From assembly GCA_963924555.1 (NCBI GenBank), contig OZ004591.1, positions 6,076,001-6,140,000 of the forward strand: a stretch of 64,000 nucleotides of DNA. The letters run 5' to 3'. The notes under the pieces were generated by a model. It searched no databases, was not told where the DNA came from, and saw only the letters and a list, made by a program, of their open reading frames with translations. Both the position numbers and the translations under genes were made by a program. Below are positions 1 through 62,651 of the stretch, piece after piece. The stretch's first letter is position 1. Every line of letters begins with the position of its first letter. Origin of the DNA: Crambe crambe. Lineage: Eukaryota; Porifera; Demospongiae; Poecilosclerida; Crambeidae.

Positions 1-190
1 TTACTTCTAAAGTTTCTTCCTGGATGCAGCTATGAAAGTCCGTATTTTTAACGTAATCTTAATTAGTATTCCGTAAATGGGCGCTCCAATGATTAAACCT
101 CGAGAAAATGAATATCCGGGAGCGTTTCATATCCACGGAGTGCTCTATTATCTATGGTCAGATTGTACATACATCACAACCACCGACGAG

Positions 191-820
191 ATGGCAACTA
201 ATGCAGCAACTGAAGGGACAGTTGAAGCCCACTTGAAGCAGGATCAGTTTCGCGTTCGCATCGGGGCGTATTTTAAGTCACTGGACGAAGATAAAGACGG
301 TATAGTTTCTAGAGAAGATTACTTAAGTATTGTCCAAAGGATCAATAAGATTAAGGAGGAAAGTCCGGATGCCATTGCCCGTCCAGATGCTATTCCCAAA
401 GCAAAAGAAGCTATTTTGGCTTATGCTGATGCGGTGGGGCTTACTGAAGGTGTGAAAGCAAGCCTTGACGACTATCTAAAGATGGCAGCAAACGTATTTG
501 CTCAGGAACTTGCGAAGTGGAACAGTGGAGAAACAACCCTGCTTGAAAATATGGACCAAGCTTTCTTTGATGTCTTCAACATGGATGATGAATTTGTGAC
601 CTTACAAGCATATAGAAATCAAGTGAGTATTTTAAATATATCTCATGAAGCTGCAGACAAAACTTTTAAACACATCCTGAGCATAAATAAAGGGGGACTC
701 AATAATGGAAAAGTAACGAGAAAGGATATTATCAATGCTCATTTTGGTTATTGGCACACTCTGGACAGAAGCAAAGATAAGATTTATCCTGATCATAAGA
801 AGTTCGTACAAAAGAAATAA
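191..820 (+). CDS. EF-hand calcium-binding protein, sarcoplasmic calcium-binding protein/calexcitin-like (copy A)
   Basis: A single-exon protein of about 209 residues when started at ATG 191 (context GACGAGATGG). The frame stays open up to another ATG at 77, but those extra 38 residues are largely encoded by a sequence that recurs as a repeat near 37840, so the inner start is preferred. The best EF loop is DEDKDGIVSRED (about residues 32-43), with the usual D-x-D-x-D-G pattern and D instead of E at position 12. A second, degenerate loop reads NMDDEFVTLQAY; copy B has NKDDEF there, the only residue difference noticed. A C-terminal loop with GGLNNGKVTRKD has no good calcium ligands. Proteins of this family buffer or sense cytosolic calcium. 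No signal peptide is visible. The family is assigned from length and the C-terminal FGYWH region; a luciferin-binding-protein-like relative is also possible. Confidence 0.85.
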   Translation: MATNAATEGTVEAHLKQDQFRVRIGAYFKSLDEDKDGIVSREDYLSIVQRINKIKEESPDAIARPDAIPKAKEAILAYADAVGLTEGVKASLDDYLKMAANVFAQELAKWNSGETTLLENMDQAFFDVFNMDDEFVTLQAYRNQVSILNISHEAADKTFKHILSINKGGLNNGKVTRKDIINAHFGYWHTLDRSKDKIYPDHKKFVQKK

Positions 821-2990: not shown

Positions 2991-3579
2991 CTACAGAAAT
3001 AGAGACTGACTGACAAAAGACAGACAGATTGACATACAGAGGTGCATATACAGCTCACTAGAAGGTTCAATGAAGTCCAGATTTTTGACACTTGCAGTGC
3101 TGAAGAAGTCTCTCATGAGTCCGAGCTTGACTTGACATGCACTCCTGACAGGTCTAAACTGCAATGCGACAAAGGAACCATCTATTTCATCTCCATTAAG
3201 GATTTTCAATTGCTAGCAGCTGGGGTTAACCACGGCTACCTTTGAGATCAAAGAGCACTATAGTTGTGGTATGTTTGAGCTGGAATGAACTGAAGGCAAT
3301 GAAGAAATATACTTATTTGTATTTATGCATGATGCTCTGCGTATGTTATACCTGTGAAGAAAACACTGATAGCAAGAAAGTTTCTGCATGCGCAATCTAG
3401 TTAATATTGATTGTGCATGCTATTGTTAGGACATAATGGTACAAACATACATAGCTACTATGTAGTACAAAATTCTATAGCCAACAGGTGCATGTTAGAA
3501 ATTATAACTCGCAAATACATTGAATGGGGTGCATGACCAGGGTACTCCATCTGCTGGTGCATCCCTACTTTTTATGAAG

Positions 3580-3808
3580 TAGCTGACTGTTGGAAGAAGA
3601 TGATAATGAAGATAATCTATGAGATAATGATCAGATAACATTGTCATTACCTAGCTATTACTAAAGAGTTTATTTCTGTCTCTGGGTAGTTTATAGCTGA
3701 CTGTTGGAAGAAGATGGTTATGAAGTTAACGATCAGTCTATAACATTGTCATTAACTATTACTAAAGAATCTATTTCTGTCTCTGGGTAGTTTATAGCTG
3801 ATTGTTGG
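3580..3808. repeat. Tandem repeat, about 2.1 units of 101-114 bp
   Basis: Two units beginning TAGCTGACTGTTGGAAGAAG (about 3580 and 3694) and a third partial start (TAGCTGATTGTTGG at 3795). Each full unit ends with TTTATTTCTGTCTCTGGGTAG or a close variant. The array starts exactly where the EF-hand duplication ends. Confidence 0.85.
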
Positions 3809-14671: not shown

Positions 14672-16767
14672 ATGGCCTTAAGTGAGGTTGATGTCCCTGG
14701 CGCGTCCTTGCAGGGAAAAGACCCTAGTGTACGGAAAGTTCCTGAATTGAAAAGGTGGCTTCAGTGTAGAGCTGCTTCTACCAGGGGCAAAAAGGCTGAT
14801 TTGGTTTCAAGGTAAGTTTTAATGTTGGTGAATACTAAAATGCTTTAGCTAGCTATTATTATGCCACCACAAGCTGTAGTGGTAGTGATGACACTACATT
14901 TTAGCCATAAGTACTTTGCACAGACTATTGTTGGTCTAGAGCAAACTAGGCCAAAAACCTTTTATGATCTAAGCTATAACTTAAACCTAGCTACATGTAA
15001 GGTCAAACTAAATAATTTTATCTATGCTTACAGGATTCGAGCTTATATAGCTAATGGTTGGGCTAATGCCATCATTGATCCAGATGCTGATGGAAGAAAT
15101 GAAAGGTCTACTGATGATCAGCCTGATAATGAAACTAATAAGCTTGATGACCGAACTTCCATGTTACCATGCAGTAACCATAAGACAAGAGCAGTCTTGG
15201 AAAGAGTTAAAAGTAATGTATAAATCACCTTCTAGTGTTCCTAGGTTTACTAATGCCCAAGTAGTAACATACTTTGTTACGAGAACTGTGTCTGATGGTT
15301 ACGAGAACTGTGTCTGATGGATTAAAATCTAGTAATTTTAAGGCAATCAATCAGTCTGCTATGAATCTATATCTTTGTGGCCATGTGCAAGAAATTCAAG
15401 CATCCCAAAACAAGGAAGCACTATTTTTAAAAGCAAAATGTCTACCAGAGATGAAAAAAGATCGTGTGTATAAGTTATTGATGTCTATGAACACTGATAA
15501 GAACTATGACATACCGACAGCAGAATGTGGATGTCTAGGAGGTAAAGGTCCCACTGCAACTTGTAAGCATATAGGAGCATTGTGCTATGCAGTTCAGAAT
15601 TTCTGTGCTAAAGGAAGCATGCCCGAGTTTCTTACCTGCACTCAAAGGCTTCAAGAGTGGAACAAGCCTCGTGCCAAAAAGGTTGATCCAATTGCTGTGG
15701 AAGACATTAGAGGACATCAGCAGGTAATTATGGCTGATACACCACGAAAATTAATACGAAATCCAAGAATTCCAAGCAATTTTGATCCACAACCAGTTGA
15801 TTGCCGCCAAACTGATCCTATTGCTCTTGAAAAGTTAAGGACAGATTTGTTATCACTTGGAAAACCCTGTGCATTGTTGACAATTCTAGTTCCTAAAGTT
15901 GAAATTGCACTACATGATCACACAACCTATAATAAGAAACTGGAGTGCAGTACTGGCAAGACTAGCATTTCCCCACCTGATCCTGTGAGATTTCAAACTT
16001 GCCCCTATACTTCTGACGAGATGCAGTTTTTCAGCGAGAAGATTATTACAGATTTGAGTATATCTTCCGAGGAGCGAACTAAACTTGAACAAATGACAGT
16101 ACAACAATCTCATTGTTCTCTTTGGTATCAAGCACGCTTTAAAAGAATTACAGGATCAAAATGTTGCAAAATTTTGACACAAATCTCAAAAACACCAGCT
16201 CTCCTTAGAAATGTTCTCTATACCAAACCATTCACCATAGTACCGGCACCTATTAAGTGGGGTCGAGACAATGAACCTATTGCACTCCAGAAATATGTTG
16301 AATACATGCAGGAGAATGGACACACAGAACTAAAACTTAGGCAGTGTGGTTTCTTTGTGCATCCCCACAAACCTTGGCTTGGTGCCTCACCTGATGGAAT
16401 AGTGGTGGATCCACCCTACAGCACCGGACTATTGGAGATAAAATGTCCCTATAGTGTACGAGACACACCACCTAGATTGGCTTGCCAAGAGTCGTCTTTC
16501 TACTGCTATACTTCTGATGATGGAATCCCTAGACTAAAAAGAACTCACGAGTATTATCATCAAGTGCAATTGGAACTGTATGTTTGCTCTGATAGTTGTG
16601 GTTGGTGTGATTTTTGTGTGTATACAACTAAAGGCATCCTAGTTGAGCGAATTTATCCTGATCAAGAATGGGAACAGAAATGTATTCCTCAGCTCAAAGA
16701 ATATTACTTCAAACATATTCTACCTGAACTTGTATATCCTATGCACAAACCATCATATTTTTTATAA
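14672..16767 (+). pseudogene. SAP-SWIM-YqaJ exonuclease-like protein of the ISL2EU-like element (frameshifted)
   Basis: Exon 1 (14672-14811) starts 12 bp inside the TIR and encodes a SAP motif (VPELKRWLQCRA ... GKKADLV). A GTAAGT donor follows, and the next exon begins after TGCTTACAG at about 15033 (RIRAYIANGW). The main open frame from about 15298 to 16767 has a SWIM zinc finger (ECGCLGGKGPTATCKH, CxC-x9-CxH) and a YqaJ/lambda-exonuclease-type domain: RFKRITGSKC, WGRDNEP, GASPDG (metal-binding Asp) and LEIKCPYS (ExK). Family members are 5'-3' exonucleases with PD-(D/E)XK chemistry; the role in transposition is not established. The reading frame is broken at about 15180-15205 (about one base) and by a 22-bp tandem duplication at 15276-15319. 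Nuclease motifs themselves look intact. Confidence 0.85.
15276..15319 (+). repeat. 22-bp perfect tandem duplication inside the YqaJ gene
   Basis: GTTACGAGAACTGTGTCTGATG occurs twice back to back (15276-15297, 15298-15319). Since 22 is not a multiple of three it shifts the frame. Removing one unit joins VTRTVSDG directly to LKSSNFKAINQSAMNLY. Confidence 0.95.
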
Positions 16768-16771
16768 TATT

Positions 16772-18136
16772 TTAACACAGTGGTGGCCAAAAGTTTGACA
16801 ATGCTGATGATACAAAAAACATTTGGTTTGCTAGATCTGTTAAAGAAGCGGGTATGACGCGATCAAAAATATGGTAGTTTTTAATACGCTCTCAACATGT
16901 ATGCGCACTGAAGCTATCCTCCTAGTTTCTATCATTTCATCCTCATCCAACTGAGATTCCCCACGCAAAAAGGGAGGCATGTTTAGCTTGACACCAAGAA
17001 GTGTCAAGTCATCCTGAATATCGAAGCCTCTGTCAGCCATGACAGAATCACCCCTCTCCAACAAAGTCAATATGCCACTCTGCTTTGTTAGTTGCTTGTC
17101 AGAAATGCATCCAGAGTAAAGGTCAGAAATAAAGATAATGGCTCCACAAGGGGATATCCCAATTAAAGCCTTGTATGTATTCTTATTCTTAAAAAGTCAT
17201 TTGTTGAACATCGGGGAGAGAAGGTTTCTCTATGAATATTTCAGTAGCATCCAGTATTACTCTTGTGAAAGGGTATAGTTCTGCAAACTGTTTGGACATG
17301 GTACTACGAATGATTCCCCGGGGTGGCCACAGTGGAATATCTTTCAGTTTCATGTACAAAAAGTTTATCCAGGTTGCAAAAATTCTAGAGATCGTAGAAC
17401 ATGACAGGTTAAAATGATGAGCTAAATCTTGCTCAAACAAGCCAAGGCGCAATCGTACCAACACCATAAAGAATTCCTCCAGAGGTGGAAGGGTCCGATT
17501 TCGACCCCTGCCTTTAGAATCAGGTGGTGTACATTTAGCATTCCAATAGATCAAATTATGGACAGAAGGTCCAAGGAAATCAAAGCATGCTTTTAGAGAT
17601 TCAAAGCTTGGAAATCCAGTATAAAAAGCAATTATTTTGTCATCATGTCCTATGTTTTCCAAAGAAAACTTAAGAGAAAGAACATTCTTCTGTAAGCTGG
17701 CTACATTCTGGTTCAATTGAGTTACCTTTAGATTTAATCCCTCCACATGATCACCAGTTAATTCTGTAGTAGTAGTAGCATCTCTAACAGGTGGTGAGGG
17801 TATGTCAACATCATCACTAAGACCAAGACTAGTTGCAAAGGATACTTCCAACCTTCTCTTTGGAGATGGTCTTCTCCTTACTGGAGTGATTTGAGTAGCT
17901 AGCTTTGGGAGATTCTTTGATGGGTACTCATCCTTCCTAAGTAGTCTATGGGCACTGTTAACAAAATGATTACTGCAAACCCTTGAATTGCTGTTCAAAG
18001 GAAGGTTCTTTCTCCCAATTTTGTGGATCCATACCTTCAGCAAAGTTTTGTCTTTCAGTGGCAGTCGATGGAAAGAAAGGTGGGGCATCTTTGATGAACT
18101 GTTAGTACAGCCAGGAACGACACAGAAATGAACCAT
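16772..18136 (-). pseudogene. THAP-domain DDE transposase of the ISL2EU-like element (frameshifted)
   Basis: Start chosen at 18136 (MVHFCVVPGC), the usual THAP beginning and outside the TIR; an in-frame ATG at 18178 lies within the TIR. The THAP C2CH zinc finger is visible: CVVPGC, then VWIHKIG and SRVCSNHF. A basic region and a short coiled-coil-like stretch follow, then a DDE_Tnp_4-type core: NLSCSTISRIFATW (helix-turn-helix-like), VILDATEIF (first Asp), VMADRGFDI (second Asp) and IHVE (Glu). The frame shifts near 17190 and again near 16900 (two extra bases after HVE), after which the protein would end at the TAA complementary to 16772-16774. All three presumed catalytic residues are present across the pieces. 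Confidence 0.87.
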
Positions 18137-18146
18137 TTTCTGATAC

Positions 18147-18219
18147 TCCAAATAGAGCGCAACACCCCCAGACCGCAAGTTCTAATTATCTATTTAAAGG
18201 TTATGCAAATGAGCTATTG
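18147..18219 (-). repeat. Right terminal inverted repeat of ISL2EU-like element
   Basis: 73 bp, reverse complement of 14588-14660. The transposase start preferred here (18136) lies just inside it. Confidence 0.92.
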
Positions 18220-38375: not shown

Positions 38376-38918
38376 AATGTGGTGATCTTGTTGGCATAAC
38401 ATGCACAACTTCATAAGCACTCTTCCATCTACGACTGATCATCTGTGCACTACCACTTTACCTGATGAACATCAGCAGGTATTAACCACAGGTGCACCAA
38501 CAATCTCAAGCTATTCAAAAGATTATATGATGAATGTACTTGTTCATTAATGTATGTGTGTGGTACAGCAACTTTTATTTGATAGAAGATTTTCAAACAC
38601 CTTCTGGAAGTGCACCTGATGATGATATTGCTGTCTCCTATTGAACACAAGACTGTGGTGGTCTGCTGTTCCCATTCACCTGGAGCATTATTCTTGCAAA
38701 TCTCTTAGAATAGCATTTTATAAATTCTTGAATATCTGTCCTTTTTAACTTAAATTTAAGAATTTGTTTGAATAATATCACACTGCTATGTATCTATAAC
38801 CTAGCTACAGTATTATATAATCATTGATGACCATCCTGCTGTTGCAACTTCTAAAGTTTCTTCGGATGCAGCTATGAAAGTCCGTATTTTTAACGTAATC
38901 TTAATTAGTATTCCGTAA
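38376..38918 (+). promoter_or_regulatory. Upstream region of EF-hand copy B
   Basis: Sequence immediately 5' of the EF-hand gene, present in inverted, gene-less form at 19729-20196. It probably contains the promoter, though no TATA box or initiator can be defined with confidence. Copy A's equivalent lies outside the window apart from its last 70 bp. Confidence 0.4.
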
Positions 38919-41900
38919 ATGGGCGCTCCAATGATTAAACCTCGAGAAAATGAATATCCGGGAGCGTTTCATATCCACGGAGTGCTCTATTATCTATGGT
39001 CAGATTGTACATACATCACAACCACCGACGAGATGGCAACTAATGCAGCAACTGAAGGGACAGTTGAAGCCCACTTGAAGCAGGATCAGTTTCGCGTTCG
39101 CATCGGGGCGTATTTTAAGTCACTGGACGAAGATAAAGACGGTATAGTTTCTAGAGAAGATTACTTAAGTATTGTCCAAAGGATCAATAAGATTAAGGAG
39201 GAAAGTCCGGATGCCATTGCCCGTCCAGATGCTATTCCCAAAGCAAAAGAAGCTATTTTGGCTTATGCTGATGCGGTGGGGCTTACTGAAGGTGTGAAAG
39301 CAAGCCTTGACGACTATCTAAAGATGGCAGCAAACGTATTTGCTCAGGAACTTGCGAAGTGGAACAGTGGAGAAACAACCCTGCTTGAAAATATGGACCA
39401 AGCTTTCTTTGATGTCTTCAACAAGGATGATGAATTTGTGACCTTACAAGCATATAGAAATCAAGTGAGTATTTTAAATATATCTCATGAAGCTGCAGAC
39501 AAAACTTTTAAACACATCCTGAGCATAAATAAAGGGGGACTCAATAATGGAAAAGTAACGAGAAAGGATATTATCAATGCTCATTTTGGTTATTGGCACA
39601 CTCTGGACAGAAGCAAAGATAAGATTTATCCTGATCATAAGAAGTTCGTACAAAAGAAATAACCTTGCAAAGGAGACATGAAGTTACTTTAGTTGTAGTT
39701 AAAACACTATTTTTTGTGTGCATTAGCAGATTGTGATGGCTTCAATTATCTGTGATTTTGTCTCATCATATCATGCATGTGTGACAACAATCAGTCACAT
39801 GCTGACAATGGTGTAGCCATATACCAAGATTAGATTAGCGTTGATAAATATGTCTGCATGCCATGTTTGTATAGGCCTCTTCAGAGGAGCTAGCTGCATG
39901 GTTCTCCCCAAGTAACCAGAGCCAAGAAGCGAGTCTTCCCTGCATGTATTGTAAGATCACCAATTGGGATGAAAGAGGAATATCTGGGTATAGTGGGAGA
40001 GCCATTATTCTCCCCAAACAGGGATAATATTATTAGGATCGATTAACCAGCTGATAATTGGGGAGATAAGAGAAAGGGACCCAGTACCCAAACCTCCAAG
40101 GCTAGCTAATGTCAAGTCGCATGTATCAATGGTCCTTAAGGTTCTGGTATACTGTTATCAATTTATTAGCAAACTCATGAATTTTCAAGTATAGCAACTG
40201 GATTTGGTGATCACAACAATATTGTACTGGGCTTGGCATATACCAAAAATCATTTTTTGAAAACTGTGTTATGGCATATCAAAATTATTAGCCAAGAATC
40301 TTACACATTATGACAATCTATGAAATTCCTATTATGGATGTCTCCAAACAGGAAGGTTGCTAGGGAGATAACTCCAGAGCTATTTAGCGAAAAAGCCAAT
40401 TTTTGCCTAATTTTCATGGCAGCTTTGCCAACGCTTGTAACTCTCAGTAGCTATTGAACTTACTTTGATGATTTTTGCCTTTCCTCTATATTCTACAATG
40501 TAATATTGATTAGCTTAATCACACCTGACCTTGTGATTTGAAAAGTCTAGACTAAATACTCAATATTACGTTGATAGCTGATGAAATCTGCAGTGCAGAG
40601 ATGTATATACAAGATTATCAAAATTTCATGCTCATTGGCGCACATACGAGCTTGCTTATGCGCGCACATTATGTAAAGCGTGAGCAGCTGCTCTCAATTG
40701 ATTGAGGCATTCTCTGTGTTAGGGGCCAGACATCATATCTACAAAAGTATCTGGACACTGACTCTCTAGGACGATCCAGCTGTTGCTTCGCTGCGTCGTC
40801 TAGCTAGCTAGCTCAGCTCCTAGATCAATCGACCTTGTGCTGTTTTCAGATTCGTAATCGGAATTAATTTTGGCAATTGAGTCTTCAACCACCAAACCAC
40901 CAAATCAAATTCTCTGCCAATATTTCCGGCCATATGGTAGTCACTCAATTTATAGACTAATTCAGTGGCTTCAGAAGGCAGAAGCTGTTTCTGCACTGAA
41001 CGATTCTGCGATTTCTTTTAATGTGCACTGCAGAAAGGTCACACCCATCATGATGATCAGCTGATCAATTGTTGTTACAGTTCTGATATAATCTAGCAAT
41101 GATCACAAAATGTTCAATGTGTTATTTTTTGAGGCTACTGGGGCTGAGACATGCCAAAAAAATTGGGGGGGGGGGGGGGGAAGGAGGGGGGACATTGGCA
41201 AATACAGTGAGTAATATAGCTAGCTTTGTGTCTATAAATTCTTTTGTGAATGAACAGTATTATTCTAAACAAGGCTTGCCTTTTAGCTTGGCTGCATTTA
41301 ATTAGTACTATGTAGCAGCAGCTGCTCGGCTGGCTGGTGACTATTCAATTATTTATTGGTGCATGAGGAGTGTCATTTAAGAATGCCACTTTGACTCAAT
41401 CTAGTCCTTCTAACCTTGTGCCATGGTTATGGTCTCATGATCACTGTGGTAAGTGGACTAGAGTACTAGACTAGTTCATTTTTTCTGTGGCTTAGCAGCT
41501 GGCTTATAATTATATTTAATTTTATGAAGTACTGCAATTACATGTAAACAATCCCTCTCTGAGTTTCCAGTAAATAACAATAACTGCCACTTTATATATC
41601 ATACACTAAAGCCAAATCATAGTTAGCAACACCTGAGATCAGTTATTATTATGCTTCAAAATTGTGCCAGTGGGCAGTGGATCACTGGTTTTAGTTCATG
41701 ATGACCACTGATAATGATTGCATCAGTATAACCACTGCATTTTTATGGTTTTACTGTTCGTGGTAAACTCATACATTTTTCGGCGGTGCTAGGCAACCAA
41801 CCTGTAGCTATGATGGATAGGGGAAAGGCTAATAGCTACAGAAATAGAGACTGACTGACAAAAGACAGACAGATTGACATACAGAGGTGCATATACAGCT

Positions 41901-42431
41901 CACTAGAAGGTTCAATGAAGTCCAGATTTTTGACACTTGCAGTGCTGAAGAAGTCTCTCATGAGTCCGAGCTTGACTTGACATGCACTCCTGACAGGTCT
42001 AAACTGCAATGAGACAAAGGAACCATCTATTTCATCTCCATTAAGGATTTCTAATTGCTAGCAGCTGGGGTTAACCACGGCTACCTTTGAGATCAAAGAG
42101 CACTATAGTTGTGGTATGTTTGAGCTGGAATGAACTGAAGGCAATGAAGAAATATATACTTATTTGTATTTATGCATGATGCTCTGCGTATGTTATACCT
42201 GTGAAGAAAACACTGATAGCAAGAAAGTTTCTGCATGCGCAATCTAGTTAATATTGATTGTGCATGCTATTGTTAGGACATAATGGTACAAACATACATA
42301 GCTACTATGTAGTACAAAATTCTATAGCCAACAGGTGCATGTTAGAAATTATAACTCGCAAATACATTGAATGGGGTGCATGACCAGGGTACTCCATCTG
42401 CTGGTGCATCCCTACTTTTTATGAAGTAGCT
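38847..42431. repeat. Segmental duplication, copy B
   Basis: Direct copy of 3-3584. After 42431 the sequence leaves the duplication and continues inside a long palindrome that also includes its last 600 bp. Confidence 0.93.
39033..39662 (+). CDS. EF-hand calcium-binding protein, sarcoplasmic calcium-binding protein/calexcitin-like (copy B)
   Basis: Same 209-residue product as 191-820, start chosen at the equivalent ATG (39033; the frame is open to 38919). The only residue difference noticed is K in the second loop (NKDDEFVTLQAY) where copy A has M. Lys there is the more usual EF-hand-like residue, so copy B may be the ancestral form. The intronless coding region with conserved flanks means both copies came from a DNA duplication and not from retrotransposition after the duplication. 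Confidence 0.85.
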   Translation: MATNAATEGTVEAHLKQDQFRVRIGAYFKSLDEDKDGIVSREDYLSIVQRINKIKEESPDAIARPDAIPKAKEAILAYADAVGLTEGVKASLDDYLKMAANVFAQELAKWNSGETTLLENMDQAFFDVFNKDDEFVTLQAYRNQVSILNISHEAADKTFKHILSINKGGLNNGKVTRKDIINAHFGYWHTLDRSKDKIYPDHKKFVQKK

Positions 42432-43134
42432 ATTCATCTCTTACTCATACGTATAAAGACTTCATATCTGTCAATCACACAGAAATAACTGGATTAAAAT
42501 CTAAAACTCACACTCCATAGCAGAGATGAAGTACATTTCCTATAATCCCATTGGAAGTCTTATATATTATGTTGGAAATTTATGGTATAGTAACACCATT
42601 CATCTGTGACCTGTTACTCCACCCTTAATAGTCATGTAGGGTTGTAATAAGCTGCTAAACTTCGTTTCACAACACATGGCTAGCTAGCTAGTGATAGCTA
42701 CAAGGAAATTTACAAAGGTGTGTAAAGTGATCCATAGTAACACACACTACACCGAAACAATCCTGGACTTGTAGCACCACAGAAGGAAACCTCATTATGA
42801 GTGCTTCAGTGTACCTATGGTGTGTGTGTGTGTGTATGTGCATATGTAGCACTTCTGTTTTTGGAGTCATTATTAGCTACATACGTTTGATTGTCTGAGA
42901 TGACATACCGTATAGCGCGATATTTTCGTGGGTAAAATTGTTCGTGAATTTCGTGGTTTTGAAAAAATTATACACGAGAATAAGGGATCACACATCAATA
43001 TTTGTAAAATCACGAAAATTTTGACCCACGAAAAATTTGCGCCATAGCTAGCTATACATGTGAGCTTTCTCAGTAATTGATTAGCATACTTATGGAGGAT
43101 ATCCTCATCCTCCACATTTCTTAATTGATGCCAC
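41826..43134 (+). repeat. Left arm of large palindrome
   Basis: About 1.3 kb whose reverse complement forms 43225-44571. It starts at AAAGGCTAATAGCTACAG inside the EF-hand duplication and ends at GATGCCACAT. Confidence 0.88.
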
Positions 43135-43224
43135 ATCGATTGTATACACCCGTGATAGCTGTGCATGCATGCATGATTTCATCAGATTATGTGAGATGTG
43201 GTAAGGAAATATGACCCACCACAT

Positions 43225-44571
43225 AATGTGGCATCAATTAAGAAATGTGGAGGATGAGGATATCCTCCATAAGTATGCTAATCAATTACTGAGAAAGCTC
43301 ACATGTATAGCTAGCTATGGCGCAAATTTTTCGTAGGTCAAAATTTTCATGGTTTTGGATGTGTGATCCCTTATTCTCATGTATTATTTTTTCAAAACCA
43401 CAAAATTCACAAAAAATTTTACCCAAGAAAATATCGCGCTATACGGTATGTCATCTCAGACAATCAAATGTATGTAGCTAATAATGACTCCAAAAACAGA
43501 AGTGCTACATGTGCACATACACACACACACACACCATAGGTACACTGAAGCACTCATAATGAGGTTTCCTTCTGTGGTGCTAATCATGCTAACAAGTCCA
43601 GGATTGTTTTGGTGTAATGTGTGTTACTATGGATCACTTTACACACCTTTGTAAATTTCCTTGTAGCTATCACTAGCTAGCTAGCCATGTGTTGTGAAAC
43701 GAAGTTTAGCAGCTTATTACAACACTACATGCAGTACATTACTATTAAGGGTGGAGTAACACGGTCACAGATGAATGGTGTTACTATGCCATAAATTTCC
43801 AACATAATATATAGACTTCCAATGGGATTATAGGAAATGTACTTCATCTCTGCTATGGAGTGTAATTAGATTTGGTTACTGCTGTGTTGCATTTTAAAGG
43901 GTGGTTGAGTTTTAGATTTTAATCCAGTTATTTCTGTGTGATTGACAGATATGAAGTCTTTATACGTATGAGTAAGAGATGAATAGCTACTTCATAAAAA
44001 GTAGGGATGCACCAGCAGATGGAGTACCCTGGTCATGCACCCCATTCAATGTATTTGCGAGTTATAATTTCTAACATGCACCTGTTGGCTATAGAATTTT
44101 GTACTACATAGTAGCTATGTATGTTTGTACCATTATGTCCTAACAATAGCATGCACAATCAATATTAACTAGATTGCGCATGCAGAAACTTTCTTGCTAT
44201 CAGTGTTTTCTTCACAGGTATAACATACGCAGAGCATCATGCATAAATACAAATAAGTATATTTCTTCATTGCCTTCAGTCCATTCCAGCTCAAATATAT
44301 TGATCTTAAAGGTAACCGTGGTTAACCTCAGCTGCTAGCAATTGGAAATCCTTAATTAATGGAGATGAAATAGATGGTTCTTATGTCTCATTGCAGTTTA
44401 GACCTGTCAGGAGTGCATGTCAAGCTCGGACTCATGAGAGACTTCTTCAGCACTGCAAGTGTCAAAAATCTGGACTTCATTGAACCTTCTAGTGAGCTGT
44501 ATATGCACCTCTGTATGTCAATCTGTCTGTGTTCTGTCAGTCAGTCTCTATTTCTGTAGCTATTAGCCTTT
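43225..44571 (-). repeat. Right arm of large palindrome
   Basis: Reverse complement of 41826-43134, slightly longer because of an extra stretch of about 48 bp near 43866-43914. The arms differ by scattered substitutions (CGTGG versus CATGG near 43350), so the inverted copy is not brand new. The 90-bp spacer 43135-43224 recurs, inverted, at 46036-46110. Confidence 0.88.
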
Positions 44572-49689: not shown

Positions 49690-49726
49690 ATCAGAGAGTG
49701 CGCTAGCACTCTCTAAGTAGGGATGG
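49690..49726. repeat. Palindromic element end (copy B)
   Basis: ATCAGAGAGTGCGCTAGCAC followed by TCTCTAAGTAGGGATGG: a 22-bp palindrome (AGAGAGTGC GCTA GCACTCTCT) and then TAGGGATGG, directly abutting the Helitron-like remnant. Confidence 0.85.
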
Positions 49727-50129
49727 CAGGTCAAAGGTCATAGGACTGTATAAACTAAAACTCTTCTTTCTCTTCTACCCTTGCTTTACAGGTTCTCAAA
49801 AGGCTACAGTGAGATACTACTTCTACAAAGAAGAGAGGAGAGTGTTCAAAATCAAAAATTCATTCGCTAACATAAAAAAAACAACGAGTTCTAAAATTGA
49901 CTTTTGTTCATTTTCTTTATTAATAATAATAAATATAAGATCAACGCCCCGACTTACTGGCTATAGTCATCAAAATTCTGCTTTGGCCATCTGTTAGAGC
50001 GGCACCTAGAGGCTGATCTTTTGCTATTAGTTTTGACTAAGGCTCTACTTCACTATTCGATAGCACTCGGCACTTAGTCTCTGTCCCAGCCCCCTAGCTC
50101 ACAGCACTGGATGTATTGCATCACCAGCA

Positions 50130-50834
50130 CGCGAGGGTTAGTCTGGTGAACCATCCCCGGCCACTTCCGCAGCACTGGATGTATTGCATCACCAGCACGC
50201 GGAAGGGGGGGTCTGGCACAACGCGTATACTAAACTCGTTCCGCTGCAGCCTAGGCTGCAGTAGCATTGTGGTCTGTTGTGGTTTGGTCAGCTCCAACCT
50301 CTAATTAGGTGTTATGTAAACTGTGTCTTTCATAAATAGCATACCTGCATATTCTTCCATGTGATTTAGCTATCCTGTATAGTTCTTCTTCACTTTTATT
50401 TGATACCTGCTCTTCCAAGCAGTAAGTACTCACTTGGAAGAGTCACTCTCTCCAAGTAACCTCCTTCTTTCTGTATACTTTTAATAGCATTAAGGTAAAG
50501 CAGGGTGACTTGGGACACGGGGTAACTTGGGACACTGAAGTTATATTTCAATCTTGCTTAAGAGTTTCAAGATCTTATTTTGCACACATAAAGTTTAAAA
50601 CATTAAATTTTATGCTTTGTCTCTCTTTGAAGCCAGTCTAGAGTGTTTTGGTTATTCTGTTGGTAATAAGCAGCCCTAAACACTCCACTGATTTTACAAG
50701 ACTGCAAGAAAAAACCCTAATAAACTAACTTCAAACTTAACTGATTTATCAATATCAATAAATAAATAAATAAATAAATAAATAAATGCTTCTGCTGTGC
50801 TGGGGACTTATTAACTTTAACCATCCTATTCTCA

Positions 50835-50875
<41 letters not shown>

Positions 50876-51535
50876 TTTTTGTTGTTTTTTGGTTGACATT
50901 TTATTTTTGATTCTCCATGTTTCCGGATCCCCATCTCATTTGATTTCTATTCAGGTTTATTTATTTACTTTGTGTCTACTCCCATTTTGACTCTTTTTTT
51001 CATCATTAAAAAAAAAAAATTATTCCAAAAAAATTTATCAATATTATAGATAATGCATAATGATATCTGTTTTTAAAAAGTGATCAGTCAGCATAACATG
51101 CATAGCACGCTGTTTAAGCTTTGTCAAAATTGCATGGACATGCAGATTTCTGCATACTACACATGGGCGAATTGTAGCCAATTAATTAATAAGCAATACC
51201 CATCATCTTTAGCTCAGCCTAGGACTAGAAAGGTTGCTCTATCTCTTGCAACTTAAAGCTTGTTCATAGCTAAAGCGGTTGCAGAGATATCATTTGTAGT
51301 AAGAGTGTCCCCATCTCTCCATATTATGTGTAGCATGCAGTTTACATAACACCTAATTAGAGGTTGGAGCTGACCAAACCACAACAGACCACAATGCTAC
51401 TGCAGCCTAGGCTGCAGCAGAACGAGTTTAGTATACGCGTTGTGCCAGACCCCCCCCCCCTTCCGCGTGCTGGTGATGCAATACATCCAGTGCTGCGGAA
51501 GTGGCCGGGGATGGTTCACCAGACTACGCGAGGGT
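50130..51535. mobile_element. TAGTCT-type element (inner) nested in the outer one, 9-bp TSD
   Basis: Element 50139-51526 starts TAGTCTGGTGAACCATCCCC and ends with its complement; TIRs are about 185 bp, reaching GTTATGTAAACTG (50320) and CAGTTTACATAAC (51344). The flanks are CGCGAGGGT (50130-50138, 51527-51535), a perfect 9-bp duplication. The unique core (about 50321-51343) contains AAAT and ATT microsatellites and no gene. The TIR shares a 37-bp module (CAGCACTGGATGTATTGCAT...) with the outer element, so they are related. Confidence 0.9.
50757..50873. repeat. AAAT and ATT microsatellites
   Basis: (AAAT)n at about 50757-50787 and (ATT)n at about 50837-50871, inside the inner TAGTCT element. 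Confidence 0.9.
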
Positions 51536-51656
51536 CTGGTGGTCGGGCTGCAGCGATCACGGAACTGAGGAATGTTTGGGATTTTACTTAAATTCAATAA
51601 TTATGCGCATGCGTGTTCATTTTGCCGCGGGGAAAAAGTTATTGCATGCAGCAGCA

Positions 51657-52073
51657 ATGAGGCAGCTTTCTTGCAGGGTCTGTGGGAAAGAGCTCACTAA
51701 TCACAGAGAGCGCAGGGTTCTCCACTGTAGTGCTAACAAGGAAGTGCTACCTGTTCTAGAGAAGTATATCTCCCAGGGAAGGATAAACCCAGCAATGATC
51801 TCTCCAATAGCTAATGGTGGACCCTGGATCTGCAAACATCCATGCTATAAAGAGTTAAAGCGAGTTCAAGAGATTCAAAATGAACTGCAGACACTGGACA
51901 TCAAATTGAGGGGCAAGATTGGTTCAACATATGGTGTTGAGAGTATTCCCATTACATTCAGAGTTGAACAGACATACTTTATTGCTTCATCCACAGCAGC
52001 TTGCTTATCATCTGGCCTCTTCTCCATTATTATCAAGTTTCATCTACCACACCCCTTTTCGCGCGAAAGTTAA
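51657..52073 (+). CDS. Cys-rich zinc-binding protein fragment carried by the outer TAGTCT element
   Basis: Start chosen at ATG 51657 (MRQLSCRVCGKELTNHRERR). The paired-Cys layout CRVC, LHCSA and WICKHPCYKELKRVQ, followed by a helical EIQNELQTLDIKLRGK segment, resembles zinc-binding N-termini seen in transposase-associated and some host proteins. The last 45 residues look non-coding and may follow an exon border near 51930. It may be a captured host or transposase exon (a Pack-MULE-like situation). No catalytic domain. Confidence 0.5.
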   Translation: MRQLSCRVCGKELTNHRERRVLHCSANKEVLPVLEKYISQGRINPAMISPIANGGPWICKHPCYKELKRVQEIQNELQTLDIKLRGKIGSTYGVESIPITFRVEQTYFIASSTAACLSSGLFSIIIKFHLPHPFSRES

Positions 52074-52656
52074 TGTGTGGTAAAATGGAAATCTAATCAT
52101 TGGGTGCGCCTGAATTCCGGCGCAGTTCCGTGACCGCTGCAGCCCGACCACCAGACCCCTTCCTCGCGTGCTGGTGATGCAATACATCCAGTGCTGTGAG
52201 CTAGGGGGCTGGGACAGAGACTACTCGGCACTAGCTAATCTTTCTACGCCATTTTGAAGCGCACGTCGGTAGGGGCGGGGCCTATGGGCGGAGCCACGAA
52301 AACTTCAGTAGCTCTGCTAGCTAGGCTTAGGTCTTCAGTTTAATCGTTTAGCTAGCTATTTATTCTTATCTGATGATGTTCCAGTCACTCCTTATTGAAT
52401 TATAGTACAGATGCTCATCCTATAGTAGTATTATAGCCAGTACTTGGCTGTAGTGTAGTCACCATGCTCAGTTACATTGCTATTGCTGATATTAAATAGC
52501 TAATAGACAAAACTGAATAGCTAAACAAATTCTTTAACCAGTGAAGAAAAAGATAAGGTTTATGTAGAGCTGGCTTTGTACTGTACTGTAGCTTCATCAC
52601 TGCATACTCTCAGTTGAAGTGACGGTCTATGCAAAGCACTAAGAAAAAGGATGGAA

Positions 52657-52924
52657 ACAAGTGAGCACAAAAAATTTCTTCTAAATAAAAAGGTTAAGTA
52701 GGGATAGCCTAAAATCTAGCTGGGCTATATAATGTACTGCAGCCTAGCTCGTATGAAAACAATCCCTACTTTTACAACTGCCGTAGCTAGTTATAGGTAG
52801 TGGATATAAATGTAGGGATTGTTTTCATACGAGCTAGGCTGCAGTACATTATATAGCCCAGCTAGATTTTAGGCTATCCCTACTTAACCTTTTTATTTAG
52901 AAGAAATTTTTTGTGCTCACTTGT
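52657..52924. repeat. Fold-back hairpin 1: 113-bp arms, perfect
   Basis: Arms 52657-52769 and 52812-52924 are exact complements by eye; the loop is 42 nt. The base of the stem is ACAAGTGAGC...AAATAAAAAGGTTAAGTAGGGAT and the tip is CAATCCCTAC/GTAGGGATTG. An imperfect solo right arm lies at 54838-54938. Confidence 0.95.
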
Positions 52925-53753
52925 AATAGTTCATTTGTATAGTAAACTACATAGACGATTACAGTTATTTTAATTGGCTAAATTCCACACTTTAGCGGTA
53001 TAGAAAACTAGAAGAAAATTTGTCGGGGGAATGGTAGTCTTCATAACTTAGGTTTGTGCTTATTATCTAGTTTTGTGAGTAGAGTCATCCTTCTTTTATA
53101 GAATGAGTGGCATTAGATGCATGTTACTGCATTAATGGTGAAAATATAAACCAATTACTTAGAGCACTCATGCATGGGAGGAAGGAAGCATCGGCTATGT
53201 ACAAGAAAGTAATGGTCATGTGACCTCCACTGCTGCACTCCATTCCAGATATCCTGGTCACTCCACAGTTCATGCCAGTATTAAATGATCAATAGTGTCA
53301 ATATCATTAATTTTATAGATTGCAACATGACCCTAAAAATTGTTCCGGCATTGCAGCTCCTGTGTCTCTCTAGTAACTGTGCCGGATTGATTCCAGCAAA
53401 ATTGTGTTGGTAACTCTGATGACTGCATCTTGGCATTGAAGTTCATTGACAATTTTGATGGTATAATATTATATTATTAGCAACTCTGCATCAATTTTTG
53501 TGATCACTTACTTGTGCATGCAAAATTAATCTATCTGAGCCAGAAAGTAATTATTATAATTAGTGTAGTATAATTATTGTGTAGTAGCCTCCTCGACTGA
53601 TGAATAAGGAGAGGAAGAAGAGTCCATCACATCACTAGTAGCATGCACTGTATGTATTGCACATTATCACTGTATGTTCTGTAATAATTATTAGATTTAA
53701 GCGCGCGCGCGTTGACTTAAGGAATTGGTTCCGTTTCCAATCCCGGGGCGGTA

Positions 53754-53790
53754 ATCAGAGAGTGCGGTAGCACTCTCTATGTAGGGATGA
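53754..53790. repeat. Palindromic element end (copy C)
   Basis: ATCAGAGAGTGCGGTAGCAC, TCTCTATGTAGGGATGA. It precedes 220 bp of unique sequence and then hairpin 2, so 53754-54461 may be one unit. Confidence 0.85.
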
Positions 53791-54012
53791 CTCGGACGGC
53801 CGCGCGCGCCGCCTATAGACTAATACAAAAGTGAAATTCCAGTTTCCCCACTTAGACCTAACAAAAGCTACTGTGAATGATTATCCAGCCTACTAGAGCC
53901 TACTACAATGTGCAGACCAAGTTTCAGGACCAGGGAGCTTACCGTTTCAGAAATACGGCAAGCAGGTAAATCGCTATAATTATTCTTCTTCTTCTCTATT
54001 ATTATTATTATT

Positions 54013-54461
54013 ACAAGTGAATGCAAAAAATTTCTTCGAAATAAAAATGTGAAGTAGGGATGCTATTATAACTGCAGCTTCATTATGAAAACCAAGTACT
54101 GCAGCATCGAAGCAGTATGGCCCAAAAATCTAGCTGGAATATGTATTATAACTGCATGCAAGAGAGTGAACTTAGTGAAGTGACCCTTACCCATCATCAA
54201 GTACGAGATACTATTCCTACTTCACTCCCTTGGCCCTTGATCATGGGAGTGAAGTAGGAATAGTATCTCGTACTTGATGATGGGTAAGGGTCACTTCACT
54301 AAGTTCACTCTCTTGCATGCAGTTATAATACATATTCCAGCTAGATTTTTGGGCCATACTGCTTCGATGCTGCAGTACTTGGTTTTCATAATGAAGCTCC
54401 AGTTATAATAGCATCCCTACTTCACATTTTTATTTCGAAGAAATTTTTTGCATTCACTTGT
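54013..54461. repeat. Fold-back hairpin 2: 217-bp arms, one mismatch
   Basis: Arms 54013-54229 and 54245-54461; loop of 15 nt. One mismatch was seen (CTGCAG versus CTGGAG about 65 bp in). The stem base reads ACAAGTGAATGC...AAATAAAAATGTGAAGTAGGGAT, as in hairpin 1; the arm body is unrelated to hairpin 1. Confidence 0.95.
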
Positions 54462-54837
54462 TTGCATTCTTTTTCTTTGTGATTATGAAAATTGATAGAC
54501 ACTAAAGGCTTCCTTGATTGAACTAATGATCAGTATTTCATTCTGTTCAGGGAGGAGAGTTTGAAGGATGATCATCTGCAGTGTAATGGAGTACTGAAAG
54601 GAGTGAACATTTTAAAAAGTGAACAGCATTAGCTAATTGTTACATATGTGATCACTGAAATAATTATTGAGATGGTACGTATGTCTTGCTTGAGGGAGGA
54701 GTATGGGGAGTTTATGCATTTGGTGTAGTGATCATAATAGTGGATGCCATCAAATGGCCACATCCTGTGCAGGTGTTATATGAGGAGAACTGCTATTAAT
54801 TGCCCCACCCCTTTTATGAGGTAATATCGCGAAGATT

Positions 54838-54938
54838 TTTTTCATATGAGGCTGCAGCACATTATAGATAGCCCAGCTAGATTTTAGGCTATCCCTACTT
54901 AACCTTTTTATTTGAAGAAATTTTTTACGCTCACTTGT
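54838..54938. repeat. Solo arm related to hairpin 1
   Basis: About 88% similar to 52827-52924 by eye; no matching partner arm is adjacent. It marks the inner edge of the inverted 0.9-kb copy. Confidence 0.8.
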
Positions 54939-55693
54939 TTTTATCTTTTTTTCTTAGTGCTTGAAGTTGAATGAGGGAGGCTACAGTACAGTACTATACA
55001 AAGCCAGCTCTACGTAAACCTCTTTTGTAGGTACATACAGTGTCTCTGGTTGAAGAATTTGTTTAGCTATTTAAGTTTTGTTGATATAAAACTTTACAGC
55101 AACAGCAATGTAAATGACATGTACATGGCATGGTGAAGTGAGCTGACTACACTACAGCCAAGTACTGGCTATAATGCTACTATAGGATGAGCATCTGTAC
55201 TGTAATTCAGCAAGGAGTGACTGGAACATCATCAGATAATGAATGAAGACCTTGGCTATAGCTAAACTTAAGCTTACGTGGCTCCGCCCATAAGCCCCGC
55301 CCCCTTCAAAATGGCGTAGAAAGATTAGCAGCTGTGTTCCGAGTGCTATCGAATAGTGAAGTAGAGCCTTAGTCAAAACTAATAGCAAAAGATCAGCCTC
55401 TAGGTGCCGCTCTAACAGATGGCCAAAGCAGAATTTTGATGACTATAGCCAGTAAGTCGGTACGTCGATCTTATTATTATTATTATCCTTATTATTATAA
55501 AGAAAAAGAACGAAAAGTCAATTTTAGAACTCGTTTTTTTCTTATGTTGGCGAATGAATTTTTGGCTTTTGAACATTCTCCTCTCTTCTTTGTAGATATA
55601 ATAATTCACTGTAGCCTTCTGAGAACCTGTAGAGTAAGGGTAGAAGAGAAAGAAGAGTTTTTAGTTTATACTGTCCTATGGACTTTGACCTGC

Positions 55694-55747
55694 CATCCCT
55701 AGTTAGAGAGCCATCCCTAGTTAGAGAGTGCTACCGCACTCTCTGAT
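55694..55747. repeat. Palindromic element end (copy D) with 17-18-bp tandem duplication
   Basis: CCATCCCTAGTTAGAGAG is present twice in a row (about 55693-55710 and 55711-55728); the second copy continues into the palindrome AGAGAGTGC TACC GCACTCTCT and ends CTCTCTGAT. Confidence 0.88.
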
Positions 55748-56267
55748 TATTCTTCTTCTTATTATTATTCTTCTTAGACAACCATATCTCTCGAACCACT
55801 CAAGCTACAGCTATGATTTCTGGACAAATCCACTCCAAATTCTACGAACTACGATCTTTTCTACTCGTTGATCCTCGAAAGAGTCGATGAAAAAGGAGAC
55901 ACTAAGGAGCACAGCACTCGACTAATTCAATTAGGAAGCCATCTTTTCTATAATACGCATGCGCATGTATTTGAATATCCAATTATTCGAAATCATAATA
56001 TTACTCAGCTGTCTCTAGATGGCTAGCTAGCTCTAGCTGATGATAGACTACTGTATCGATTCGGGGATTTAGATTCACCACGGTAGACTCTATTTCAGCA
56101 TCTTCGACCTCCAAGTATGGCTCAACAACACAACACCTTGACTCGATAAATGATTGGGCTGGTATGCTATTGGAGAACTTCTTTCATCTGTCCCTGCATA
56201 CACATAGAAGAATGAACTCTAATCATAGCTAAAACCATAAAAGAGAGGAAAAAAGACCAGGAACAAG

Positions 56268-56570
56268 TAAGGGAAAAAGCATTTCGTGAAATGAAAAAAA
56301 GATGTAGGGATGACCACTGCTCAAAAAAGTAAGGAAACAAGAAGGATGGAAATGGGATCAATCTTTGTTCTGTATATCCAGCCAACAATCCCTACATATA
56401 CGTCAGGTAACTTCAGATTATAGTGTAGTAATGTGTGTATATGTAGGGATTGTTGGCTGGATATACAGAACAAAGATTGATCCCATTTCCATCCTTCTTG
56501 TTTCCTTACTTTTTTGAGCAGTGGTCATCCCTACATCTTTTTTTCATTTCACGAAATGCTTTTTCCCTTA
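56268..56570. repeat. Fold-back hairpin 3: 134-bp arms, apparently perfect
   Basis: Arms 56268-56401 and 56437-56570, loop of 35 nt. The left base begins ACAAGTAAGGGAAAAAGCAT then AAATGAAAAAAAGATGTAGGGAT, a variant of the hairpin 1/2 base; the tip is CAATCCCTAC/GTAGGGATTG as in hairpin 1. The arm body is unrelated to hairpins 1 and 2. Confidence 0.95.
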
Positions 56571-57225
56571 TATACTATCTATGACGTAGCCCACTATTAC
56601 AGATTAGCTATGAATTTCATTAAGGGTGCAGGCACATAGTAACCAAGGCATGCGCTAGTACTAGCACTAATTAACCACAAACACTACCGCGCTAAAATAA
56701 CAGATAGTAAACACAATAGCAGCTGCTGCTTTGGCACATAAAATCCATGCTAGCATGAATAATGAACAAGTCATTGCAACTCAGGAACTATGCATGGGAA
56801 TGGGCCAATATTTTGCATATGGCAACTACTTGATAAGGTCTAAAAAGTTATATTTTGCTTTAGTTTATAGCTAGTACAGAATGTGCAGGACACAAGATCC
56901 TATATGGATAAATTGAAAAGTAGAATGTGAATTGATAAAAACTAAATGTAATTTTTGTGGCAATAAGTATAAGAAGCTGTATATCAAAAATCAGCCATTG
57001 ATTCCAAGTGGTCATTGAGATGTAACGCAGTTTACCTTGAGAATGAAATCAGTCATAACATCAGTCATTTTGATTGGTCCTCCTTCATTTTTTTGTGTAT
57101 GTAGTACTATTCTGATACTTAATAATGTGGTGCAAGTTAGAAATTTCTATCATGAATAGTTTTTAAGTTAATTTTTCCTAGCAACCATGCGTGGGCGGAG
57201 TGTGCCTACAACTGAAATACGATAA

Positions 57226-57307
57226 ACGCAGTGGCTATTGTTCCGGCAACCGGACGGTGCAATCCTATGCTATAGATCCGGCAATCCAAATGCGCATGCG
57301 CAAACAC
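57226..57307 (+). repeat. Left TIR of MULE
   Basis: Includes CCGGCAACCGGACGGTGCAA and ATGCGCATGCGCAAACAC; complement at 62439-62520. Confidence 0.9.
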
Positions 57308-58195
57308 GGCTCGAAGGATGCTCCTTCGAAGTCTGGAGGAATTGTTGCGAGAGTAAAGGATGGCTCTTTTTCGCCCAGGGGGATCAAGGATGAGCTGCTA
57401 CTTTCCGACCAGACTACCCTTCTTGACGACTGCAACACCCATGTTAGCTCCAAGATTGCTACCTCTACCAACTGCAGTGGCGTATCTAGCGAGGTGCTCA
57501 GGGTGCTCGAGCACCCCCCTCAGCTGCTAGCTAGCTTTTTCAGTAGGCTCGCTTCTATAGTTATCTATCCAATTATTTAAAGCTGATCATCTAGCAAGAG
57601 TTTAATATTACACTTACAGAAAGAGCAGCATTGGGTCAGAGTTCAATAATCACATCGGCGAGGCGCATGCGCCCGGCACGTTTTTACCCTAAATAATGCA
57701 CATCTCGATCTAAAATTTCTGTGCTTTATTCAGTCTGCACCAGTGTCTTCTCACTTCTGATCCTGTACGCTGGTAAAGTAGGGTAGCTAATAGGCCATCA
57801 TCTGGGTATAATAAAGAGGGTGTGGTTAATCAAAAGTGGGCGTGGTTCGCAAAAAATTCGCGCGCATTATCTAGCTAGCAAGCACCCTCCTAGCTCAAAC
57901 TCTAGATACGCCACTGAACTGGCTCAAGATCTGGGACACAGCCATTGACTTTGGCCAAAGAGGTACCAAGGCAATACAGTCACTATTCCAAAAAATGACC
58001 AGACCTGTGTTTGGTAACATCCCATGCAGCCTATGCGATCAGTTAATTCCAGAGTCTACCCCTTATTTTGATCACTACGTGAATGAACACATCGAAGGAC
58101 AAGAGATGACCAAGGAAGATATTGAAAAGACCCTTACATCACCTTCCCTGGACCTTGCACCTATCATCACACTGTTTTCCACTATGCCCACCTGA
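57290..58195 (+). pseudogene. MULE-internal plus-strand ORF with C2H2-like finger, split by a MITE
   Basis: Part 1 runs from an ATG in the TIR (57290 or 57296) to 57474, part 2 from 57922 to the TGA before 58196. The MITE at 57475-57916 and one copy of its 5-bp duplication separate them; without the insert the frame is continuous and has no stop. Part 2 has WLKIWDTAIDFGQRGTKAI and a finger CSLCDQLIPESTPYFDHYVNEH (CxxC-x12-H-x4-H, given in pieces CSLC...HYVNEH). The function is not recognised. It could be an accessory MULE protein or captured host sequence. Confidence 0.6.
57475..57916. mobile_element. hAT-like MITE inserted in the MULE ORF, 5-bp TSD
   Basis: Ends CAGTGGCGTATCTAG (57475-57489) and CTAGATACGCCACTG (57902-57916) are exact complements; subterminal AGGGTGCT/AGCACCCT also pair. 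The flanks are AACTG (57470-57474, 57917-57921). 442 bp. CAGTGGCGTA-type ends resemble hAT elements, although 5 bp is shorter than the usual 8. Confidence 0.88.
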
Positions 58196-62397: not shown

Positions 62398-62438
62398 AAC
62401 GAAGTTTCCCTCTAGCTCTCAAGGTTCAAGGTTCTCAC

Positions 62439-62520
62439 GTGTTTGCGCATGCGCATCTGGATTGCCGGATCTATAGCATAGGATTGCACCGTCCGGTTGC
62501 CGAAACAATAGCCACTGCGT
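62439..62520 (-). repeat. Right TIR of MULE
   Basis: Complement of 57226-57307; the transposase ATG (62397) lies 42 bp inside. Confidence 0.9.
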
Positions 62521-62582: not shown

Positions 62583-62651
62583 CACTAGCGAGTCAGCCGA
62601 GAGATTTCTACTATTAGTATATGTAGAAATCTCTCGGCTGACTCGCTAGTG
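62583..62651. repeat. Perfect hairpin, 29-bp arms, 11-nt loop
   Basis: CACTAGCGAGTCAGCCGAGA... (62583-62611) and its exact complement (62623-62651) around TATTAGTATAT. About 60 bp outside the MULE's right end. Confidence 0.93.

What the first reader, a model, noticed from the sequence alone, without database searches (positions are those of the whole stretch)
52657..56570. Three almost perfect fold-back hairpins share end tags but have unrelated arms
Seen: hairpins at 52657-52924, 54013-54461 and 56268-56570 have arms of 113, 217 and 134 bp with at most one mismatch. Each stem base reads ACAAGTRA...AAATRAAAA...GTAGGGAT, and the tips of 1 and 3 carry CAATCCCTAC/GTAGGGATTG. The arm bodies do not resemble each other. 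A normal MITE family would share its arms. Inference: either a fold-back element class that copies adjacent DNA into an inverted arm, or hairpin loci maintained as double-stranded RNA precursors. Near-perfect pairing means recent formation or strong gene conversion.
Basis: partly seen in the sequence, partly recalled or inferred. Interest (0 to 1): 0.82.

Follow-up and report, generated by a model that had tools for sequence, protein, structure and literature searches.

The report
Fold-back transposon relics with matching arms
Three DNA stretches that fold back into almost perfect hairpins are real and most likely are remnants of one family of jumping genes, whose two arms match each other closely while different copies have drifted apart, a pattern already described for fold-back transposons in other animals.

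Summary
The three hairpins are real. Arms match at 117/118, 218/220 and 134/134 positions, and no shuffle folds as well. All three have ACAAGTRA exactly 41 bp before GTAGGGAT.

The bodies of hairpins 1 and 2 share a 35-column block at 80% identity in the same orientation. A lone arm at 54834-54938 (minus strand) is closely related to hairpin 1. It lies in the right copy of a larger inverted repeat of about 880 bp. The body of hairpin 3 matches neither, apart from its tip motif.

Best reading: non-autonomous fold-back (long-TIR) DNA elements. Terminal tags are conserved, bodies drift, and the arms of one copy stay alike through arm-to-arm copying or recent origin. Passages read on Galileo (PMC3573991, PMC3688188) and Tm1 (PMC3169594) describe the same traits. 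No consistent target-site duplication was found and no transposase is assigned, so membership is unproven. The host genome is not held; copy number and small-RNA use are untested. Interest is modest.

The parts
52657..52924 (.). hairpin 1: arms 52657-52774 and 52807-52924, 32-base spacer
   Evidence: 117 of 118 match; fold -212.7 kcal/mol
54013..54461 (.). hairpin 2: arms 54013-54232 and 54242-54461, 9-base spacer
   Evidence: 218 of 220 match; fold -399.3 kcal/mol
56268..56570 (.). hairpin 3: arms 56268-56401 and 56437-56570, 35-base spacer
   Evidence: 134 of 134 match; fold of 56263-56575 -252.9 kcal/mol
54834..54938 (-). lone arm related to hairpin 1: tag plus body, no second arm beside it
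   Evidence: 88-89% by BLAST to the arms of hairpin 1; 98 matches, 5 substitutions, 7 gap columns
52634..52705 (+). 72-bp tag with leader, hairpin 1 left (23-bp leader plus 49-bp tag ending GTAGGGAT)
   Evidence: 86% to 54413-54484 on the other strand
54413..54484 (-). 72-bp tag with leader, hairpin 2 right
54891..54962 (-). 72-bp tag with leader, lone arm
56263..56311 (+). diverged tag at the base of hairpin 3 (ACAAGTAA...GTAGGGAT)
   Evidence: without GTAGGGAT, 23 of 41 positions match hairpin 1 and 25 of 41 match hairpin 2 in register; 15 and 3 places outside 52.6-57 kb do as well. A profile made without it finds it only at E 2.5
49690..52764 (+). left copy of the larger inverted repeat, split by an inserted element at 50075-52223; its inner end is the left arm of hairpin 1
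54834..55747 (-). right copy of the larger inverted repeat; its inner end is the lone arm

Best explanation
The hairpins are degenerate, non-autonomous fold-back (long terminal inverted repeat) DNA elements of one family. Shown: a conserved 49-bp terminal tag in the arms of hairpins 1 and 2 and in the lone arm, a more diverged tag at hairpin 3, a GTAGGGAT-type motif at base and tip of each hairpin, and arms that match within a copy but differ between copies. Inferred: a transposase made elsewhere recognised the tags and perhaps the repeated GTAGGGAT motif; selection for mobility kept the tags; the bodies were free to drift and rearrange; and copying from one arm to the other during break repair or stalled replication, or recent formation, keeps the two arms of a copy the same.
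For: Tag distance ACAAGTRA to GTAGGGAT is 41 bp in all three hairpins. Tags of hairpins 1 and 2 match at 43 of 49; hairpin 1 and the lone arm at 46 with 2 substitutions and 1 gap column. Tag of hairpin 3 in register: 23 and 25 of 41, matched by 15 and 3 other places outside 52.6-57 kb among 127,918 positions on both strands, that total including the excluded stretch. Bodies 1 and 2: local score 33, 0 of 1000 shuffles, 45 of 20,000 random pairs of real window pieces, and 0 of 20,000 with body 1 held fixed; lone-arm body against body 2: score 32, with the same counts. Arms within copies differ at 3 of 472 positions; the two copies of the larger repeat differ at 30 of 563 compared (21/364, 4/96, 5/103). 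[quoted passage not shown] Tm1: asymmetric terminal motifs outside the inverted repeat.
Against: No consistent target-site duplication: the longest exact flanking repeats are 5, 6 and 6 bases at inconsistent boundaries, and about 0.7 six-base matches per element are expected by simple arithmetic (2862 boundary pairs over 4096); no shuffled control was run. No transposase is linked to the tags. The kinship of hairpin 3 is weak: profile E 2.5, its leader matches at only 12 of 23, and its body matches neither other body except at the tip motif. Only three hairpins and one lone arm are known, all within 4 kb, so dispersal is not shown.
Confidence: 0.66

Rival explanations
1. Motif-seeded fold-back synthesis: a broken strand folds back at inverted GTAGGGAT motifs and copies whatever DNA lies between motif and tag, so each hairpin is a recent, independent inverted copy of single-arm DNA. 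The lone arm would be the unduplicated state.
For: Motif at base and tip of each of the three hairpins. The lone arm exists, and the homology of the two large copies ends at the inner end of the arm. Hairpin 1 arms differ at 1 of 118 against 5 of 103 for arm against lone arm. GTAGGGAT occurs 17 times, 1.8 expected from a second-order Markov model; 10 of the 17 are in the hairpins.
Against: The flanks of hairpin 1 and of the lone arm do not align past the arm, so a clean empty site is not shown; deletion of loop and second arm at the lone-arm locus fits as well. Nothing in this model makes the copied tract stop at ACAAGTGA. The flanks of hairpin 1 keep a weak inverted match (17 of 32; 23 of 20,000 random pairs do as well), which hints at an older palindrome.
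Confidence: 0.17
2. The hairpins are genes for long double-stranded RNA precursors (hairpin RNA or long-form microRNA), with a conserved base and variable guide-bearing arms.
For: Very stable folds. On the leader side, read away from the hairpin, a run of five or more T follows within about 20 bases in the four places listed. Passages in PMC6211395 report long-form microRNAs and endo-siRNA clusters in a sponge; that this window is a sponge's is my recalled impression only.
Against: No expression data. The 10 Rfam matches with E up to 0.5 are all below gathering score and are generic hairpins. No 21-base piece of the left-arm bodies matches elsewhere in the window outside the family with up to 2 mismatches, though a 64-kb window is a weak test. 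The tags and the lone arm need a separate explanation.
Confidence: 0.12
3. Assembly or read-chimera artefact.
For: Near-exact inversion is a known artefact type (recalled).
Against: The hairpins start at the same tag, differ between arms at 1 and 2 positions in two of three, and share tip motifs. Independent artefacts would not do this. No reads were available.
Confidence: 0.03

Closest known systems
Galileo (Drosophila, P superfamily, fold-back-like); passages of PMC3573991 and PMC3688188 seen
   Different: Galileo copies have target-site duplications (7-bp flanks in the passages) and a known transposase with a THAP domain; neither is shown here. Mean TIR there is 668 bp; here arms are 118-220 bp.
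Tm1 (root-knot nematodes, Mutator/fold-back); passages of PMC3169594 seen
   Same: Asymmetric motifs outside the inverted repeat at the element ends; composite, variable TIRs.
   Different: Tm1 has 9-bp target-site duplications and tandem 14-bp repeats in its TIRs; neither was found here.
Tetris (Drosophila virilis fold-back); passages of PMC4079207 seen
   Same: Long inverted arms, no coding capacity, very few complete copies.
   Different: Tetris has 8-10 bp target-site duplications and a 220-bp TIR repeat.
Repetitive hairpin-forming elements of sponge mitochondrial DNA; abstract of PMC2800124 seen
   Same: Dispersed hairpin-forming repeats that vary in structure and composition.
   Different: They lie in mitochondrial intergenic regions; this window looks nuclear (transposases, EF-hand genes). 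Listed as a resemblance only.

Membership tests
fold-back / long-TIR DNA transposon (non-autonomous) | long inverted arms making up most of the element | tested here: met
   arms of 118, 220 and 134 with spacers of 32, 9 and 35
fold-back / long-TIR DNA transposon (non-autonomous) | terminal sequence conserved between copies | tested here: met
   hairpins 1 and 2 and the lone arm clearly; hairpin 3 in register at 23-25 of 41 but profile E 2.5
fold-back / long-TIR DNA transposon (non-autonomous) | target-site duplication | tested here: not met
   no consistent direct repeat at any shared boundary in the three hairpins; old copies can lose it
fold-back / long-TIR DNA transposon (non-autonomous) | many dispersed copies, insertion polymorphism | not testable with these tools
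   host genome not held; 0 hits of the tag in viral contigs; 2 in prokaryote contigs without GTAGGGAT or an inverted partner nearby, read as chance
fold-back / long-TIR DNA transposon (non-autonomous) | autonomous relative with transposase and the same ends | tested here: inconclusive
   a THAP plus HTH_Tnp_4 transposase fragment lies at 17189-18181 minus; seeds of 10 bases around it gave at most 13 matching bases and no tag; only the window was looked at
ordinary MITE subfamily | copies share their arm bodies | tested here: inconclusive
   hairpin 1 and the lone arm share the body; 1 and 2 in blocks only; 3 not
Rfam microRNA precursor families | match at or above the gathering score | tested here: not met
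   10 matches with E up to 0.5 in 50000-58000, all below gathering
hairpin RNA / endo-siRNA locus | small RNAs from the arms | not testable with these tools
   no reads available

The most novel reading that the evidence does not exclude
A fold-back class in which a repeated GTAGGGAT motif, placed at the base and tip of every arm, seeds fold-back synthesis that turns any single-copy DNA between motif and terminal tag into a perfect hairpin, so that unrelated bodies are repeatedly made into inverted arms and then kept identical.
Probability: 0.12. Interest if true: 0.65.

Novelty: new member of a known kind. Interest (0 to 1): 0.3.

Why it matters
It is a compact, testable case of how palindromic elements keep their two arms identical while copies diverge. 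If motif-seeded copying of adjacent DNA were shown, it would give a direct route from single-copy DNA to hairpin RNA precursors. On present evidence it is most likely a further fold-back family.

Tried and rejected
Search of the window's own genome for the tag: no genome is held. Tag scans of viral contigs: 0 hits each; scan there for the AGAGAGTGC palindrome: 0 hits. Prokaryote contigs: 2 hits, neither with GTAGGGAT within 80 bases nor an inverted copy within 1.5 kb, so taken as chance. Rfam: only generic sub-threshold microRNA models. tRNA: none by ARAGORN (bacterial settings) in the window. Target-site duplications: none consistent. Body comparisons: of the eight pairs scored, B2-B3, B2-rcB3 and B1-rcB2 are like chance (933, 677 and 135 of 1000), B1-rcB3 is borderline (43 of 1000), and B1-B3 (1 of 1000) rests on the 12-base tip motif alone. 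Empty site at the lone arm: the flanks do not align past the arm. Small-RNA-like targets in the window: none with up to 2 mismatches for 21-base pieces of the left-arm bodies. TIRs around the transposase at 17189-18181: nothing longer than 13 matching bases from 10-base seeds. Literature: seven searches. The listed papers gave no description of this family, but the library holds only openly licensed PMC papers and the lists were capped. The 'Amphimedon' and 'sponge' search words came from my recalled impression of the repeats, not from a call.

Full report
OBSERVATION. The three fold-backs exist where stated. Arms match at 117 of 118 (52657-52774/52807-52924), 218 of 220 (54013-54232/54242-54461) and 134 of 134 positions (56268-56401/56437-56570). 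RNA folds of the three stretches (hairpin 3 with five extra bases on each side) give z-scores of -39.2, -51.7 and -36.7, and none of 200, 100 and 100 shuffles folds as well.

ANATOMY. Each hairpin has a base tag, a body and a tip motif. ACAAGTRA starts 41 bp before GTAGGGAT in all three (52657/52698, 54013/54054, 56263/56304). The 49-bp tags of hairpins 1 and 2 match at 43 of 49. Hairpin 3 is more distant: 23 and 25 of 41 in register when GTAGGGAT is left out, a level reached at 15 and 3 other places outside 52.6-57 kb, out of 127,918 positions on both strands (the total includes the excluded stretch). A profile built without hairpin 3 ranks its tag first among the rest of the window, but only at E 2.5. 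In hairpin 3 the letters ACAAG are on the left only and unpaired. CAATCCCTAC/GTAGGGATTG marks the tips of hairpins 1 and 3, and hairpin 2 carries a 15-of-18 inverted copy of its own base motif near its tip. So each arm is bracketed by facing GTAGGGAT-type motifs.

ASYMMETRY. A purine-rich leader of 23 bp continues the tag outside the stem on one side only: left of hairpin 1, right of hairpin 2, and outside the lone arm. It matches at 19 of 23 between hairpins 1 and 2. Left of hairpin 3 the stretch is also purine-rich, but the match is only 12 of 23 ungapped, so it is not established there.

RELATIVES IN THE WINDOW. A lone arm lies at 54834-54938 on the minus strand: tag and body of hairpin 1, no second arm. 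It is the inner end of the right copy (54834-55710, to 55747 with the end motif) of an inverted repeat whose left copy, 49690/49709 to 52764, ends with the left arm of hairpin 1 and is split by an inserted element at 50075-52223. The two copies align up to the inner end of the arm and not beyond.

ARE THE ARMS UNRELATED? Bodies 1 and 2 share a block of 35 columns at 80% in the same orientation: local score 33, 0 of 1000 dinucleotide shuffles; 45 of 20,000 random pairs of real window pieces reach it, and 0 of 20,000 with body 1 fixed. The lone-arm body and body 2 share a second block (score 32, same counts). The blocks stand in a different order, so body 2 has been rearranged (inference). Bodies 2 and 3 do not resemble each other (933 of 1000 shuffles do as well), and bodies 1 and 3 share only the 12-base tip motif. 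Relatedness thus falls off from the lone arm through hairpin 2 to hairpin 3, as expected if tags are constrained and bodies are not (inference).

WHY THE ARMS MATCH. Within copies, 3 of 472 arm positions differ. Between the two copies of the larger repeat, 30 of 563 compared positions differ (21/364, 4/96, and 5/103 for the arm itself). The second arm of hairpin 1 is therefore either younger than that duplication or has been homogenised with the first since. The window alone cannot tell which: the lone arm may be the state before the hairpin or the remainder after a deletion. A weak inverted match in the flanks of hairpin 1 (17 of 32; 23 of 20,000 random pairs do as well) leans to an older palindrome.

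MECHANISM. I think most likely a non-autonomous fold-back DNA element, moved in trans by a transposase that binds the terminal tag and perhaps the repeated GTAGGGAT motif, with arm-to-arm copying during repair or replication. Shown: tags, motifs, arm identity, divergence. Inferred: transposase, binding, copying. Against: no consistent target-site duplication, no linked transposase, and only three hairpins and one lone arm, all within 4 kb.

COMPARISON. [quoted passage not shown] about 40 bp of terminal sequence is conserved between families, with further binding sites in the long TIRs. Tm1 has asymmetric motifs outside its inverted repeats. Tetris is a fold-back with three structurally complete copies. 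These traits match. The target-site duplications that all three show were not found here, so I say it works like a fold-back element and do not claim proven membership.

ORIGIN OF THE WINDOW. It looks eukaryotic: a THAP/HTH_Tnp_4 transposase fragment, a DUF6589 protein, a ZSWIM1-3/MULE domain and two copies of an obelin-like EF-hand protein. A demosponge is my recalled impression; no call tested it. The whole genome is not held, so copy number, dispersal and small RNAs remain open.

VERDICT. Real, partly misread, most likely a further fold-back family. Interest is modest. The motif-seeded copying model is the boldest reading that survives.

Noticed in passing
50075-52223: Inserted 2149-bp element with 62-bp perfect inverted ends and a 9-bp flanking repeat CTCGGCACT (50066-50074, 52224-52232), a size reported for Mutator-type elements; the other copy of the larger repeat lacks it. 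Its 198-aa open frame has no Pfam match.
   Followed up: partly
41824-44571: A palindrome of about 2.7 kb, 89% overall, with a 357-bp stretch identical between its arms 1395 bases apart.
   Followed up: no
3-3584 and 38847-42431: Direct duplication of 3.6 kb at 98.4%, holding two copies of an obelin-like EF-hand protein; its edge lies just outside a GTAGGGATG motif, and a further inverted part copy is at 43985-44571.
   Followed up: partly
49690-49725, 53754-53789, 55712-55747: A 36-bp motif holding a short perfect hairpin (AGAGAGTGC...GCACTCTCT) that ends in TAGGGATG, three copies with one mismatch each to the searched pattern (0.00 expected), two of them at the outer ends of the larger inverted repeat.
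   Followed up: partly
62583-62651: A further perfect hairpin, 29-bp arms and 11-base spacer, without the tag; an 83-bp inverted copy of 57226-57308 lies close by at 62438-62520.
   Followed up: no
15268-16767, plus strand: Frame with a YqaJ-like viral recombinase domain (E 4.3e-18) beside the transposase fragment.
   Followed up: no
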